Positions 3,724 to 8,076 of a DNA stretch of 40,075 bases are shown piece by piece. The DNA is taken from the IMG/VR virus record IMGVR_UViG_3300025694_000012, positions 1 through 40,075 of that record, one strand, 5' to 3'. The DNA is from a virus. The position numbers were made by a program, and so were the translations under genes. Each line of letters opens with the position of its first letter. Position 1 is the stretch's first letter. The notes beneath the pieces are model-generated. The model did not search any database. It was not told where the DNA came from and saw only the letters and a program-made list of their open reading frames with translations.

Positions 3724-3854
3724 CTGCTAAAGAAAAACTTTTATTCTTATCATCTTTTATCTGGGTTTTACATTGGGGAACATGTCTTACATCTTTCATA
3801 GTGGATACGGTTATTCTCAAAAACGGTGTGAGGATATTGCCCATTGGTTTTTGA
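3720..3854 (+). CDS. Possible small membrane protein, 44 aa, overlapping the next gene
   Basis: ATG 3720 overlaps the previous stop (ATGA), and the frame runs to TGA 3852-3854, overlapping the metallopeptidase gene by 73 bases. The product begins MTAKEKLLFLSSFIWVLHWG and has one hydrophobic segment (about residues 7-30). The coupling favours a real gene; the long overlap argues for caution. The last part may just be fortuitous read-through. Confidence 0.35.
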   Translation: MTAKEKLLFLSSFIWVLHWGTCLTSFIVDTVILKNGVRILPIGF

Positions 3855-4198
3855 GTGAATTTTTCCCACGACACAAAATTGTGGTAGAGATTGAACATAA
3901 AGGTCTCAAACGTGATGGTGTTGTTGGGTATTGTGATGTGATTGGTAATGATTATCGGCCACGACACTTCTTGATTGAACTTCAGGCACGTATGTCTGAG
4001 GAGATGTATATAAAAACTCTTTTTCATGAACTGACTCATCTGGCACAGTGGGTAGGTGGTTCTCTGCGGTTTCATCATGGAAAAATGAGGTATTGTCAGG
4101 AACCGGTGGAGAATTATGATTATTGGGATCAACCACATGAAATTGAGGCACGGAAGGAAGAAGTAAGGCTATATGATCAGTGGTTAAATGAGGAATAG
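3782..4198 (+). CDS. SprT-like zinc metallopeptidase, 138 aa
   Basis: ATG 3782 is chosen over an in-frame TTG at 3773. The HExxH zinc motif is clear (H82-E-L-T-H86, followed by LAQW), and a downstream glutamate in the PHEIEAR stretch (residues 119-124) is the likely third ligand, as in small SprT/minigluzincin-type peptidases. Nothing resembles a signal peptide, so it should act in the cytoplasm. Similar small HELTH proteins occur in many T4-like cyanophages; their substrate is unknown. It ends the first block; the nuclease promoter begins about 30 bases downstream. Confidence is high for a metallopeptidase fold, low for a specific role. Confidence 0.75.
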   Translation: MSYIFHSGYGYSQKRCEDIAHWFLSEFFPRHKIVVEIEHKGLKRDGVVGYCDVIGNDYRPRHFLIELQARMSEEMYIKTLFHELTHLAQWVGGSLRFHHGKMRYCQEPVENYDYWDQPHEIEARKEEVRLYDQWLNEE

Positions 4199-4229: not shown

Positions 4230-4258
4230 TTGACATTACCATGAATCGGTGATATATT
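4230..4258 (+). promoter_or_regulatory. Strong sigma-70-type promoter TTGACA - 17 bp - TATATT
   Basis: TTGACA (4230-4235) and TATATT (4253-4258) are separated by exactly 17 bases. It lies 53 bases upstream of the nuclease gene, which has an AAGGAG ribosome-binding site. This suggests independent early expression of the nuclease by the host polymerase. Confidence 0.8.
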
Positions 4259-4311
4259 AGATTCATGGGAGAAATCCCCGATCAACATTAGTCTTTAAGG
4301 AGATTGTAATT

Positions 4312-5454
4312 GTGTCCAAAACAAAAAAGCAAGGTGCAGGAACATCAATCGAGCATTATATTCAAGATGCAGCAGAGATTCGATTGACCGCACGTTTACA
4401 AGAAGAGGCAGAGAGATTAGGAGTTGCCTCTAAGAGCATTTCTTCAGAAATCAATAAGGAATTTGAGAAGGCATGTGTAGACGGTAATATTGAGACTAAG
4501 TTCTCTAAGAGTAAGTATTCTAAAAATATAGAAGCAACATATCAGTCTATAGTTCAGGATCTTATTAAGAAATATCCTGATCGTAAGTTTTATTTTCAGT
4601 GTGTAGATACAGAGTATCGCAATTTAGGAAAGAAAGGTGATATTCTTATTCATTTTGATGATGGTGAGAAAATCTCTGTTAGTGTTAAGAATTATCAGAA
4701 TGGATATTCTTCTATTCAGGTATGTTCAGGAACATTTAATTCTACATTAAATAACATCTTATTTGATAATACTGATTGTTCTCCTGGAATGTATATTTCA
4801 CCTTATGGTGTAAAGTTTAAGGGAAGCAATAGAGAGTATCGTGATGGACTTGTAATGAGACAATATCCTGAATTACTTCCTTTCTTTGGTAAGTTGGATA
4901 ATATTAATGATAGTATTCGTGACTACTATATTAATAGTCCAGAGGCAGAGCATTATGAAAATGTAGCAGATCAGTGGAAGAAGGATTGTTCTTCTGTTGG
5001 TACTGAAGTTGCACCTCTTGTTGTTGAGGCACTTTCATTTCTACCTAATGAATCGGTTCTTGGTAGAATGCAGAAAGCAACTGGTTTAGTATCTGATGAG
5101 CATCTACTCTGTCTTGGTAAAGGTGAATATCTATTCTCTGTTACTAATGAGGATTATCATAAACTTTGCAATCGTGTAAAGGCAGCAACTCATGTTGAGT
5201 TGGAGAGTAGAGGACAATCAGTTTTCTATCATATCTGTGATGCTGATGGTGTAATCATTAGTATTAATCAACCATGCACACTGCAAAAGAATGGAGCATG
5301 GTTTGCAACCAATGAACCAAAGTTTGAGGGTGTTCGTGAAAAGAATGATAAAGGTAAAAAGTTTATGCTTAAGTGGGGTCAAAGAAGACCACGTAAGAGT
5401 AAAGAACTTGCAACATCTACAAACATGTATCTTAAATTAAAAGACTATATGTAG
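4312..5454 (+). CDS. PD-(D/E)xK-like nuclease, putative restriction endonuclease, 380 aa
   Basis: GTG start at 4312 with AAGGAG at 4297-4302. Residues about 107-131 read like a PD-(D/E)xK core: K-K-G-D110, a beta hairpin (ILIHFDDGEKISVS), then S124-V-K126 followed by NYQNG. The middle acidic residue is Ser, a known variation in such families (S-x-K forms). Residues 1-90 are helical; residues 290-380 are basic and could bind DNA. The gene has its own promoter, and two adenine-methyltransferase-type proteins lie downstream, which fits a restriction-modification-like or self-protecting host-DNA-degrading system. Alternatives are a homing-type or host-takeover nuclease. The nuclease call rests on one motif; the restriction role is inference from context. 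Confidence 0.55.
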   Translation: MSKTKKQGAGTSIEHYIQDAAEIRLTARLQEEAERLGVASKSISSEINKEFEKACVDGNIETKFSKSKYSKNIEATYQSIVQDLIKKYPDRKFYFQCVDTEYRNLGKKGDILIHFDDGEKISVSVKNYQNGYSSIQVCSGTFNSTLNNILFDNTDCSPGMYISPYGVKFKGSNREYRDGLVMRQYPELLPFFGKLDNINDSIRDYYINSPEAEHYENVADQWKKDCSSVGTEVAPLVVEALSFLPNESVLGRMQKATGLVSDEHLLCLGKGEYLFSVTNEDYHKLCNRVKAATHVELESRGQSVFYHICDADGVIISINQPCTLQKNGAWFATNEPKFEGVREKNDKGKKFMLKWGQRRPRKSKELATSTNMYLKLKDYM

Positions 5455-5474
5455 TCTAATGTTTTGATTTATTA

Positions 5475-5506
5475 ATGAATCTTTCAAACTCACTTGAAAG
5501 ATTCAT
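5475..5506. terminator. Perfect 13-bp hairpin between nuclease gene and next gene
   Basis: ATGAATCTTTCAA (5475-5487) and TTGAAAGATTCAT (5494-5506) are perfect inverted repeats around a 6-base loop (ACTCAC). No T-run follows on either strand. It lies 20 bases after the nuclease stop, so it may terminate or stabilise the nuclease transcript, or bind a dimeric regulator. Confidence 0.55.
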
Positions 5507-5544
5507 ATATACATGGTATTCTTGAAACAACCTTTAAAAAAACA

Positions 5545-6621
5545 ATGAGTAAGCATTCCTTCGGCGTAATTAACGCACAAAAATTTCCAAAAGCACCCGA
5601 TTGTAAAGAGGGGTATGAATGGATTGATGGTGGAGATGTTAAGATGATCCCAATTGAAAATTGGGAGTCTGATTATGAGTGTGATGCAAATACTAAAATA
5701 AATGATCACACAAATTATGAAAAAGTAGAGAGTAATTTACAAGCAACGGGATTTGATCATTCTTTTGAACCAGGACATGCAGTTCCTATCCCTGGGACAA
5801 ATAATGTTTCAGGAAAGAGTGCTAGAACTCGTCATAATATTCTTAAAAACAATGGATATAAGTATTATCCAACTAGGTTAATGACACCTGTTGAGGGATA
5901 TGATGAAAGAATATCATCATTTTCTGAGGCGATGTCTGCTGATCTGCAACATAAACCACATAGAGAATTGAGTATGAAGCAAATTGCACAACAAATGTGG
6001 GCACAAAAAGATAAAGGTATTTCCTGGTATCATGGGCAACCCGTTAATCCTGTGACCGGAGAAATTATCTATGGGGATGATGAATTTGATCATGCTTATG
6101 ATACAGAGTTTGGAATCAATCAGGTATTTTGGCATAAAGTTCCAAGGGGAACTATCAGAAATTTAGTAAACAAAGGATTTTCCACTGCTGTGAAAATCAA
6201 TGATAAAGATGAGAGAGTAATTAAGCAAGAAGTCAAAGATCATGAACTTGGAAATGGTAATGATGGATATAAAGTCAGTTTGATTTGTATGGATGACGCT
6301 GGCGCAAATGCTCCTGCTAAATTGTGGAATTTGTTTATGAATCCAAATAATAAGATTCGTCACATTATTTTCACTAAAAAAGCACAAACGGCAGAAGAAG
6401 TGAAAACAATGAGAGAGACCTGGAGAAAAACTTTGATTAATTATGCAAAGATTGCTATTCAGTTTTCTCTGCAAAATAAATATATTTCTCCCGAAACAAG
6501 GGAAGAATTTATTAATGAGCGACTTCATATAATGTTTGCAAATTTTGAACTTTATGGGTATAATCATCTTGAGGATGAGGAAAATTATGTGAAGATTGAT
6601 ATGTTTCGTGAGTATGTTTGA
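5545..6621 (+). CDS. Unknown protein in the nuclease/methyltransferase cassette, 358 aa
   Basis: An in-frame TTG at 5494 lies inside the hairpin; ATG 5545 (MSKHSFGVINAQKFPKAPD) is the more natural start, though its ribosome-binding site is weak. Visible features: a segment FEPGHAVPIPGTNN near residue 85, then GKSARTRHNILKNNGYKYYP, a central WYHGQPVNPVTGEIIYGDD (about residues 155-175), and a helical C-terminal third. I recognise no nuclease, ATPase or methyltransferase motif. Its position between a putative nuclease and the methyltransferase halves suggests a partner such as a specificity or control subunit, but this is only context. Confidence 0.65.
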   Translation: MSKHSFGVINAQKFPKAPDCKEGYEWIDGGDVKMIPIENWESDYECDANTKINDHTNYEKVESNLQATGFDHSFEPGHAVPIPGTNNVSGKSARTRHNILKNNGYKYYPTRLMTPVEGYDERISSFSEAMSADLQHKPHRELSMKQIAQQMWAQKDKGISWYHGQPVNPVTGEIIYGDDEFDHAYDTEFGINQVFWHKVPRGTIRNLVNKGFSTAVKINDKDERVIKQEVKDHELGNGNDGYKVSLICMDDAGANAPAKLWNLFMNPNNKIRHIIFTKKAQTAEEVKTMRETWRKTLINYAKIAIQFSLQNKYISPETREEFINERLHIMFANFELYGYNHLEDEENYVKIDMFREYV

Positions 6622-6704
6622 TCTAATCTAACAGATAAAGTATAACGACATTATTCTCATTGGAGATTGGTTTGTTTAATTAAATAAATCACCTCTAAGA
6701 GAAT

Positions 6705-7628
6705 ATGCAGTTTGATATAATAGTAACGAATCCACCATTTCAGGATTCTACCAATAAGAAGAAGACACAACATAAGCTATGGATTGACTTTACACAGAAA
6801 ACATTCAGTGAGTGGTTAAAACCTGGAGGTATTCTCCTTCAGGTTTCTCCTAGTAGTTTCTTATCACCATCCAGTAAGATTCTGCAACTGTTTAAGTCTA
6901 AGGCAGTGAAGTTTCTGAACTTAGATACAAAAACTTATTTTCCTGAAGTGGGAAGCACGTTCGCCGACTATATGGTCTCCAACCGTCCCGGCATCGAAAA
7001 AACTAAAGTTGTTACTCAAGACGGTACATTTGACTGTAAAATAGATGATTCAGTGTTCTATTTGCCTATAGATTTATCAGAAAATGCCTTATCTGTTCAT
7101 AATAAGGTAATGTTTGAGATAAGAGAGCACCTTGATGTAAGATATGATTATGTGACGTGTCATAACGTGAATTTGCTACGGGAGACTGGTATCATCAATA
7201 AGTGGGATAACTGTTGTGACATTAAAACTAAACAAGAGTTTATTGATAGTCATCCAATTCTACACACAAACAAACAAACTTGGTATTCACGAATTCGACA
7301 GGATTGGGCATCAAAGAAGAAAGTAATGTGGTCACGGAGTGGATATACAAAACCAGTTTATGATGATGGTATTTTAGGTGGTACTGATATGGTATATTAT
7401 GTGTTGGTGAATGATAAAGAATCGGGAGAGAATCTAACACATAACCTGAATAGTACGCTAATGAAGTATATTCTCAAGACTGCAAAATGGTCTGGGTTTG
7501 GTAATGAGAAAGTATTTTGTAGGTTGCCAAATTTACCAATTGATTGTAAAATGAGTGATGATGATGTGTTTGATTTCTTCAACATCACAGAACAAGAGAG
7601 AGTGTATGTCAGACAAATTGTGGGATGA
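6705..7628 (+). CDS. N6-adenine DNA methyltransferase, C-terminal half (motifs IV onward plus target recognition), 307 aa
   Basis: ATG 6705. The protein opens at once with F-D-I-I-V-T-N9-P-P-F12, motif IV (NPPF) of amino-methyltransferases, which grips the adenine amino group. It continues with a motif V/VI-like segment (WLKPGGILLQVSPSSFL, about residues 39-55). The rest (to 307) would be the target recognition region, with conserved-looking KVMWSRSGYTKPVYDDG and GGTDMVYYV stretches. The S-adenosylmethionine-binding motifs X, I, II and III are missing from its N-terminus but present in the next gene, which overlaps by 23 bases. I infer that the two proteins form one gamma-type enzyme, split between motifs III and IV. 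Related NPPF proteins occur in cyanophages as I recall. Confidence 0.75.
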   Translation: MQFDIIVTNPPFQDSTNKKKTQHKLWIDFTQKTFSEWLKPGGILLQVSPSSFLSPSSKILQLFKSKAVKFLNLDTKTYFPEVGSTFADYMVSNRPGIEKTKVVTQDGTFDCKIDDSVFYLPIDLSENALSVHNKVMFEIREHLDVRYDYVTCHNVNLLRETGIINKWDNCCDIKTKQEFIDSHPILHTNKQTWYSRIRQDWASKKKVMWSRSGYTKPVYDDGILGGTDMVYYVLVNDKESGENLTHNLNSTLMKYILKTAKWSGFGNEKVFCRLPNLPIDCKMSDDDVFDFFNITEQERVYVRQIVG

Positions 7629-8076
7629 AGTAAAGAATAGGATGAATGATCACTCTTATATGGGTGAGATTAATCGTGACGAATACAGAGTCAAAGTAAC
7701 AGCCGAGGTTTTTACTCCGACTGATTTGGTGATAAGAATGATTCGTGAATGTGGTACGGATGAGTTTGTATCAGGCAAAACAGTTCTTGACCCTGCATGT
7801 GGAGATGGTCAGTTTCTAACAGCAGTCAAGTGGGTGAAAGTGTTGTTTCATAATATGAGTGAGGAAGATGCACTTAAAGATATCTATGGTGTGGATATTA
7901 TGAGAGATAATGTTGACCTATGTAAGAAAAGATTGGGAGGAGGAAAAATATTAATGGGTAATACATTAGATCCTGCAAAGAGATTAGACGGTCAAAGTGA
8001 TAGTGAACATGATATGATGAAGTTTCTATTTCTAGCACAGACAACGGTCTATAGTGCCGAAGCAATGGACACCTAA
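7606..8076 (+). CDS. N6-adenine DNA methyltransferase, SAM-binding half (motifs X, I-III), 156 aa
   Basis: The frame is open from 7555, but ATG 7606 (MSDKLWDEVKNR) gives a short 23-base overlap with the upstream half. Motif X is E34-V-F-T-P-T-D followed by LVIRMI; motif I is L61-D-P-A-C-G-D-G-Q-F-L71; motif II is Y-G-V-D97-I; a motif III-like G-N-T-L-D-P follows at 118-123. No NPPF is present: the protein ends about 35 residues later, where motif IV would normally follow. It therefore complements the upstream protein exactly. The last 15 residues look like read-through into the intergenic module. Alternatively it could be an independent SAM-binding protein, but the overlap and complementary motifs argue for a pair. 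Confidence 0.75.
   Translation: MSDKLWDEVKNRMNDHSYMGEINRDEYRVKVTAEVFTPTDLVIRMIRECGTDEFVSGKTVLDPACGDGQFLTAVKWVKVLFHNMSEEDALKDIYGVDIMRDNVDLCKKRLGGGKILMGNTLDPAKRLDGQSDSEHDMMKFLFLAQTTVYSAEAMDT

What the first reader, a model, noticed from the sequence alone, without database searches (positions are those of the whole stretch)
4230..8076. Phage-borne nuclease / unknown / split methyltransferase cassette
A putative PD-(D/E)xK nuclease with its own near-perfect sigma-70 promoter is followed by an unknown 358-aa protein and two proteins that together carry a complete N6-adenine methyltransferase motif set. Seen: D110...S124-V-K126 in the nuclease, NPPF in one methyltransferase half, DPACGDG in the other. 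Inference: a compact restriction-modification-like system by which the phage degrades host or rival DNA while protecting its own. Such a layout in a lytic T4-like phage would be unusual.
Basis: partly seen in the sequence, partly recalled or inferred. Interest (0 to 1): 0.75.

Follow-up and report, generated by a model that had tools for sequence, protein, structure and literature searches.

The report
Phage-borne TTSAA restriction-modification system
Ocean viruses of bacteria carry a DNA-cutting enzyme that appears to recognise TTCAA/TTGAA together with a two-piece DNA-marking enzyme that would guard their own genome, and relatives found with the cutter but no guard have lost every copy of that sequence from the genome stretches examined.

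Summary

- **NUC (4312-5454)** folds like restriction enzymes HinP1I and MspI; D110, K126 and Q136 are invariant in the 45 of 46 distinct relatives that cover them.
- **MTB (6705-7628) and MTA (7606-8076)** are halves of one adenine methyltransferase in permuted order; three relatives carry them fused.
- **UNK (5545-6621)** has a ParB/sulfiredoxin-fold domain and is an optional cassette seen only between NUC and MTB.
- **Linkage:** NUC has MTB nearby in 52 of 55 first-tally records, including four bacterial genomes.

The decisive test was unplanned. In 14 records NUC is seen without a methyltransferase (10 shown, 4 cut short). All 14 hold zero TTSAA (TTCAA/TTGAA): S-SZBM1 0 against 708 expected, P-RSM6 0 against 683, one metagenomic contig 0 against 114, eleven later contigs 0 against 558. 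All 52 NUC-plus-methyltransferase records keep the site, as do NUC-free relatives, one on the same host. So NUC is very probably an active TTSAA endonuclease, with methylation replacing site loss as self-protection.

UNK promoters carry TTSAA at recurring positions, suggesting self-regulation through the system's own site. Cleavage and methylation were not measured.

The parts
4230..4268 (+). sigma-70-like promoter of NUC, TTGACA 4230-4235, 17 nt, TATATT 4253-4258; a 9-bp inverted repeat (4239-4247 / 4260-4268) brackets the -10
4312..5454 (+). NUC: predicted type II restriction endonuclease, HinP1I/MspI-like PD-(D/E)xK fold, D110 / S124-x-K126 / Q136, inferred target TTSAA
   Evidence: TTSAA
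5475..5526 (+). UNK promoter and presumed operator: -35 TTGAAA 5494-5499, -10 TATTCT 5517-5522, 13-bp perfect inverted repeat 5475-5487 / 5494-5506, TTSAA at 5483-5487, 5494-5498, 5522-5526
5545..6621 (+). UNK: optional protein (358 aa) with a ParB/sulfiredoxin-fold domain, candidate regulator
6705..7628 (+). MTB: C-terminal-type half of an N6-adenine methyltransferase (motif IV NPPF onward, presumed target-recognition region)
7606..8076 (+). MTA: N-terminal-type half (FTP motif X-like, DPACGDG motif I, YGVD motif II; motif names recalled)

Best explanation
This is a complete type II restriction-modification system carried by a T4-like marine phage. NUC cuts unmodified TTSAA. MTB and MTA assemble into one adenine methyltransferase, a circularly permuted and split relative of gamma-class enzymes such as M.BseCI and Eco57I-type enzymes, and methylate an adenine in TTSAA on the phage DNA. 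Host and competing DNA, unmethylated at TTSAA, is cut; phage DNA is spared. UNK, when present, adds a promoter ahead of UNK-MTB-MTA whose -35 and start region carry TTSAA sites, so expression of the modification genes probably responds to TTSAA methylation, to UNK binding, or to both. Shown by computation: genes, predicted folds, linkage, permutation, TTSAA purging, promoter geometry. Inferred: enzyme activities, the methylated base, protection, regulation and biological target.
For: Fold: NUC model pLDDT 89.5; the top three PDB matches are HinP1I (Z 7.9, rmsd 4.5, 212 aligned; and Z 6.6) and MspI (Z 6.0); the next row, ACE1, is 4.8. Catalytic residues: of 46 distinct NUC proteins, D110, K126 and Q136 are kept in all 45 that cover them, S124 in 42 of 45. 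Linkage: MTB near NUC in 52 of 55 records, among them the 4 bacterial genomes found. NUC and MTB overlap by 1 or 4 nt where UNK is absent. Permutation: single ORFs in L092, L093 and L098 run motif IV then motif I; in L098 both Pfam models pass their cut-offs in swapped order. Specificity: TTSAA 0 vs 708 (S-SZBM1), 0 vs 683 (P-RSM6), 0 vs 114 (L091 contig), 0 vs 557.6 (11 further contigs, fetched after the prediction). 0 of 52 NUC+MT records lack it. Controls without NUC, 50-kb pieces: P-TIM40 154/188 (same host NATL2A as P-RSM6), S-WAM1 194/175, S-ShM2 204/185, S-SKS1 203/269, S-CAM8 261/219; nine further NUC-free phages in pieces of 7-16 kb, none zero, lowest ACG-2014f 29 vs 55. Synonymous-codon shuffles of ORFs of 200 aa or more give 397, 505 and 54 sites in S-SZBM1, P-RSM6 and the L091 contig, where 0 are seen. 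Promoter: 45 TTSAA in 961 nt upstream of 12 UNK genes vs 12.8 (sd 3.1) in shuffles; 46.8/kb vs 3.6/kb in those contigs.
Against: No cleavage or methylation was measured. HinP1I Z 7.9 is within the range the tool calls common, Foldseek's own E is 0.019, and sequence identity is 11%. MTB and MTA were not modelled. NUC is under 50% identical in 33 pairs of modules whose MTB is at least 80% alike (32-45% in the 24 pairs printed), which requires specificity to survive that divergence. NUC+MT viral records hold fewer TTSAA than expected (1724 vs 3014), one only 7 vs 98. The 14 solitary records form about three groups (S-SZBM1, the P-RSM6 type, L091), and independent origin was not tested; 4 of the 14 end too soon to show that no methyltransferase follows. 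Other words are also missing: CCGG-containing 5-mers, and 7 six-mers with neither TTSAA nor CCGG are absent from both S-SZBM1 and P-RSM6 (expected 35-67), two of which occur in some or all of three controls. UNK as regulator rests on promoter geometry and fold only.
Confidence: 0.88

Rival explanations
1. TTSAA was purged because the hosts carry a TTSAA restriction system; NUC is something else (for example a repair or recombination nuclease) and its link to the purge is incidental.
For: Phages are known to avoid host restriction sites (recalled); CCGG is absent from six of the seven isolated phages counted for it, NUC or not.
Against: P-TIM40, nearest gp23 relative of P-RSM6 and on the same host NATL2A, keeps TTSAA (154 vs 188 in 50 kb). 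Absence tracks solitary NUC in 14 of 14 records and is not seen with NUC plus methyltransferase (0 of 52).
Confidence: 0.06
2. UNK is not a regulator but a nicking or NTP-dependent DNase, or a selfish intergenic gene, that travels with the module.
For: ParB/Srx domains, including one fused to an adenine methylase, are reported as nickases or NTPases (PMC5512222, passages). UNK is a clean insertion at one site: L022 and L023 are 94.3% and 96.8% identical on either side. The inverted repeat upstream of UNK exceeds shuffles clearly in only 4 of 12 regions.
Against: TTSAA sites recur at the same promoter positions in divergent copies; UNK overlaps MTB in 10 of 12 modules, though not in the window or L008, where 83 nt separate them; and UNK is not found elsewhere (16 of 16).
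Confidence: 0.35
3. MTB-MTA are a stand-alone epigenetic methyltransferase and NUC acts on other DNA, so no cognate pair exists.
For: Comparable split pairs occur in P-SSM2 and S-CAM7, phages in which NUC was not found.
Against: Linkage 52 of 55 including bacteria; among NUC-bearing records TTSAA is kept only when the methyltransferase is present.
Confidence: 0.04

Closest known systems
AgsI, type II restriction endonuclease, TTSAA
   Same: Recognition sequence TTSAA as listed in PMC3925983 and PMC5931654 (passages). Recalled, from no call: its source is Agrococcus, family Microbacteriaceae; bacterial NUC relatives here include the actinobacteria Curtobacterium, Geodermatophilus and a Micrococcales MAG.
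   Different: No AgsI protein sequence was available, so homology is untested; phage carriage, site-purged solitary forms and UNK are not part of what was found on AgsI.
HinP1I and MspI (type IIP endonucleases)
   Same: Closest solved folds over most of NUC.
   Different: 10-13% identity, NUC is longer, different inferred site.
Chlorovirus and marseillevirus R-M systems
   Same: Virus-encoded R and M genes side by side; proposed roles are host DNA degradation or exclusion of rivals (PMC7019647, PMC7253447, passages).
   Different: Those are viruses of eukaryotes; here T4-like phages, a split permuted methyltransferase, and solitary forms that lack the site.
M.BseCI / Eco57I-type gamma-class N6-adenine methyltransferases
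   Same: The MTA profile matches M.BseCI residues 10-92 (4.8e-7); MTB matches Eco57I.
   Different: Halves are separate genes in swapped order.

Membership tests
Type II restriction-modification system | endonuclease gene beside a methyltransferase gene | tested here: met
   52 of 55 records
Type II restriction-modification system | a specific short target site can be assigned to the endonuclease | tested here: met
   indirectly, by site loss: TTSAA zero in 14 of 14 solitary-NUC records; cleavage not assayed
Type II restriction-modification system | methyltransferase modifies the same site | not testable with these tools
   indirect only: 0 of 52 NUC+MT records lack TTSAA
PD-(D/E)xK nucleases | core fold with conserved D ... 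(D/E/S)xK | tested here: met
   D110 and K126 in 45 of 45 covering sequences, S124 in 42; strand placement in the model; HinP1I/MspI top fold matches, Z below 8
HinP1I/MspI family | sequence or close structural kinship | tested here: inconclusive
   Z 7.9, 6.6 and 6.0, Foldseek E 0.019, 10-13% identity
gamma-class amino-methyltransferase | motif order X-I-II-III-IV-VIII-TRD in one chain (recalled) | tested here: not met
   gene order and three fused relatives run IV first, I last
beta-class amino-methyltransferase | order IV-VIII-TRD-X-I-III (recalled) | tested here: met
   only the order of motifs IV and I, in three fused relatives; by sequence the hits are Eco57I and N6_Mtase, and no N6_N4_Mtase hit was seen for MTB or MTA
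ParB/sulfiredoxin superfamily (UNK) | ParB-N/Srx fold | tested here: met
   KorB Z 9.3, Noc 9.2, free serine kinase 8.6, mostly within residues 15-210; no Pfam ParB hit; whole-model pTM only 0.53
classical R-M controller (C) protein | small helix-turn-helix regulator (recalled) | tested here: not met
   358 aa with a ParB-fold domain

The most novel reading that the evidence does not exclude
T4-like phages use a restriction enzyme as an offensive weapon in two interchangeable ways. Some protect themselves with a permuted, split methyltransferase. Others carry the enzyme alone and have erased every recognition site from their genome, so the whole phage genome acts as the antidote. In a subset, a ParB-fold protein and the system's own TTSAA sites form an operator that ties modification-gene expression to methylation status.
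Probability: 0.6. Interest if true: 0.92.

Novelty: new variant of a known kind. Interest (0 to 1): 0.86.

Why it matters
A 2014 review of type II enzymes says their genes rarely occur on bacteriophages (PMC4081073, passage). Here a restriction enzyme is carried by dozens of viral contigs, several of them shown to be T4-like, and its site can be read from genome evolution without an experiment. Solitary forms without the site point to a self-protection route that needs no modification. It gives a testable candidate for how some cyanophages could attack host or competitor DNA, and a predicted TTSAA enzyme pair with an unusual permuted methyltransferase. Site purging could serve as a general way to find the specificities of orphan phage nucleases.

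Tried and rejected
Family and sequence searches gave nothing usable for NUC or UNK: Pfam, PHROGs, NCBIfam, PADLOC and, by sequence, the PDB. UNK had no match in the phage collection and NUC none among plasmids. In a search of 299 genomes drawn from the family of the Curtobacterium hit, only that genome matched. psbA was looked for in 13 records and found in S-SZBM1, P-RSM6 and one P-RSM6-type contig (L144), not in the module-bearing fragments, so the window phage's host is not established. Considered and dropped: the S-SKS1 'DNA methylase' next to the same downstream gene as a relative (DPPY/DPFCGSG type); NUC and UNK as subunits of one enzyme (UNK is optional); cytosine methyltransferases annotated in S-SZBM1 and P-RSM6 as protectors of solitary NUC (NUC-free S-WAM1 has one too). 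The first tally left out the 11 contigs found later; with them NUC has MTB nearby in 52 of 66 records, is shown without a methyltransferase in 10, and 4 contigs end too soon to tell. TTSAA in those 11 was counted on the pieces held; in five of them the whole record was searched for MTB without a match. Among MT-bearing records where NUC could not be seen, L060 has 1 TTSAA in 4.2 kb. Papers: PMC4081073, PMC5512222, PMC5867850, PMC10305163, PMC3037559, PMC12707154, PMC7019647, PMC7253447, PMC3925983 and PMC5931654 were seen as passages only. No account of this system was seen in the listings of searches; the library lacks most subscription papers, and REBASE was not available. An earlier count said 8 of 12 UNK promoters share the main geometry; the recount gives 7.
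Full report
**What is there.** Four genes lie head to tail at 4312-8076: NUC (380 aa), UNK (358 aa), MTB (307 aa) and MTA (156 aa from ATG 7606; the earlier GTG at 7555 lies inside MTB). The window is a 40-kb virus record. Of ten downstream proteins scanned, three match phage baseplate wedge families strongly. A module with identical proteins lies in an 89-kb contig (L002) that also encodes gp23, the T4 major capsid protein. The closest named phages are cyanophages, but the host of the window phage is not established.

**NUC.** No family library recognises it. Its AlphaFold model is confident (pLDDT 89.5). The three best solved structures are two HinP1I entries (Z 7.9 and 6.6) and MspI (6.0), followed by other nucleases and unrelated rows at 4.8 and below. 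A Z below 8 is weak on its own. What makes it credible is that the best rows are all restriction enzymes, the alignment spans most of the chain, and the conserved residues sit where the fold needs them: D110 just before one strand, S124-x-K126 on the next, Q136 on the third. Of 46 distinct NUC proteins from phages and bacteria, D110, K126 and Q136 are kept in all 45 that cover them. Of the 14 solitary NUC sequences, 13 reach the motif and all 13 keep D, S, K and Q.

**The methyltransferase is split and permuted.** MTA matches the front of N6-adenine methyltransferases (N6_Mtase positions 24-94; its profile, M.BseCI residues 10-92), and MTB the later part (Eco57I from position 73). The gene order is reversed relative to a normal gamma-class chain. 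In three viral contigs the two are one ORF in the order MTB-MTA, with NPPF at residue 9 and the DPxCGxG motif at residue 349, 350 or 386; in L098 both Pfam models pass their cut-offs in swapped order. So the halves very probably form one enzyme. Aeromonas phages phiAS5 and ZPAH1 have single ORFs with the same motif order, and P-SSM2 and S-CAM7 have pairs that look comparable by BLAST, so permuted methyltransferases are wider than this system.

**Linkage.** Profiles built from the window families were run on 62 records. Of 55 with NUC, 52 have MTB within 4 kb. Of 59 with MTB or MTA, 52 have NUC; in five of the seven others the methyltransferase lies within 90 bases of a contig end, and two have MTA beside a different partner. 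UNK occurs in 16 records, each time between NUC and MTB. Five of these records (the window and four contigs) carry the same module. The four bacterial genomes found (a Limnochordia MAG, Geodermatophilus, a Micrococcales MAG, Curtobacterium) have NUC with the methyltransferase pair, in two cases on the opposite strand. Over 40 complete modules the identity matrices of NUC and MTB correlate (r 0.63, 0 of 1000 permutations as high), yet 33 pairs of modules have MTB at least 80% alike with NUC under 50%: NUC is inherited with the pair but is also exchanged.

**The target site.** S-SZBM1 and P-RSM6 carry NUC, and neither MTB nor MTA was found in their genomes. If NUC is active, they must lack its site. 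Among all 512 5-mers, TTCAA (TTGAA on the other strand, together TTSAA) is absent from both, with 708 and 683 expected (first-order). The only other 5-mers absent from both with at least 30 expected contain CCGG, which is also missing from 50-kb pieces of four NUC-free cyanophages. Of 17 absent 6-mers, 8 contain TTSAA, 2 contain CCGG and 7 contain neither; among those 7, CACGTA is present in all three controls and TACGTA in two, with 35-60 expected, so TTSAA stands out by an order of magnitude but is not the only missing word. Inside ORFs of 200 aa or more, shuffling synonymous codons would give 397 and 505 TTSAA; there are none. Five NUC-free cyanophages have ordinary counts (ratios 0.75-1.19), including P-TIM40 on the same Prochlorococcus host as P-RSM6; nine more NUC-free phages in short pieces are never zero, the lowest being ACG-2014f at 29 against 55. 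A third solitary contig (L091; no gp23 found in its 37 kb) has 0 against 114; it also lacks 5-mers with GGCC, GCGC, CGCG and CCGG cores. Eleven further P-RSM6-type NUC contigs, fetched after the prediction, have 0 against 557.6; seven show at least 4 kb downstream without a methyltransferase, four end too soon. All 52 records with NUC and the methyltransferase contain TTSAA; the 48 viral ones hold 1724 against 3014 expected. The simplest reading is that NUC cuts TTSAA and that MTB-MTA protects it. The 14 solitary records form about three groups, and their independence was not tested. TTSAA is the site of the known enzyme AgsI; whether NUC is its homologue could not be tested.

**UNK.** The N-terminal part of the model matches ParB-type proteins (KorB Z 9.3, Noc 9.2) and the related serine kinase and sulfiredoxin folds; the model as a whole is less certain (pTM 0.53) and the C-terminal part has no clear match. 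UNK is a clean insertion: L022 without it and L023 with it are 94.3% and 96.8% identical on either side of the NUC-stop/MTB-start junction. UNK then overlaps MTB in 10 of 12 modules; in the window and L008 there is an 83-nt gap. All 12 distinct UNK genes have a promoter-like site (9 or more of 12 matches) upstream, against 2.2 in shuffles, and together 45 TTSAA sites against 12.8; the 12 regions are related, so these are not 12 independent trials. Relative to the presumed start, 7 of 12 share sites at -47, -36 and -8 within a base, 6 of them also +3; 11 of 12 have the -8 site. The window has a 13-bp perfect inverted repeat there and L018 one of 19 bp, but the repeat clearly exceeds shuffles in only 4 of 12 regions. 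No TTSAA enrichment is seen upstream of NUC (4 in 1430 nt and 3 in 3380 nt). A promoter built around the system's own site suggests feedback through methylation, UNK binding, or both; this is inference.

**Function.** Chloroviruses are believed to use packaged restriction enzymes to degrade host DNA, while marseillevirus systems act on rival viruses and not on host DNA (passages). Either fits here. A lytic phage gains little from a defence that persists, so an offensive or exclusion role during infection seems the more likely one, but no data here separate the two.

**Verdict.** A real, active-looking phage restriction-modification system with inferred site TTSAA (0.88). It is a new variant of a known kind: carried by phages, with a permuted and split methyltransferase, an optional ParB-fold gene whose promoter is built of TTSAA sites, and a solitary form that lacks the site. 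The mended counts did not require a change of odds.

Noticed in passing
L076:2524-4459 (Klebsiella phage PKO111 gp114-gp115) and L111:1985-3950 (Shigella phage PSD9): A LEM-3-like GIY-YIG nuclease domain (2.7e-15 and 3.8e-9) is fused to a protein with NPPF and overlaps a motif-I half: a second nuclease plus split permuted methyltransferase arrangement in T-even-like phages.
   Followed up: partly
L125 (Synechococcus phage S-ShM2, 50 kb piece): The four 5-mers containing TTAA are absent (expected 108-161 each), which hints at another purged site and perhaps another nuclease.
   Followed up: no
L121-L125, L127, L132, L133: CCGG is absent from S-SZBM1, P-RSM6 and the 50-kb pieces of S-ShM2, S-CAM8, P-TIM40 and S-WAM1, but present in S-SKS1 and the window.
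   Followed up: no
L134-L135 (L091 contig): Besides TTSAA, 5-mers with GGCC, GCGC, CGCG and CCGG cores are also absent.
   Followed up: no
L064 and L065: MTA-like halves sit beside a different motif-IV protein; in L065 that protein also has its own DPSMGSG motif.
   Followed up: no
window 3773-4198: Homologue of phrog_10499 (3.2e-49) with a weak SprT-like match, just upstream of the module.
   Followed up: no
L052: This NUC+MT contig has only 7 TTSAA against 98 expected, possibly a lineage that acquired the methyltransferase recently.
   Followed up: no
L038:1827-2716: MTB is interrupted by an internal stop in this contig.
   Followed up: no
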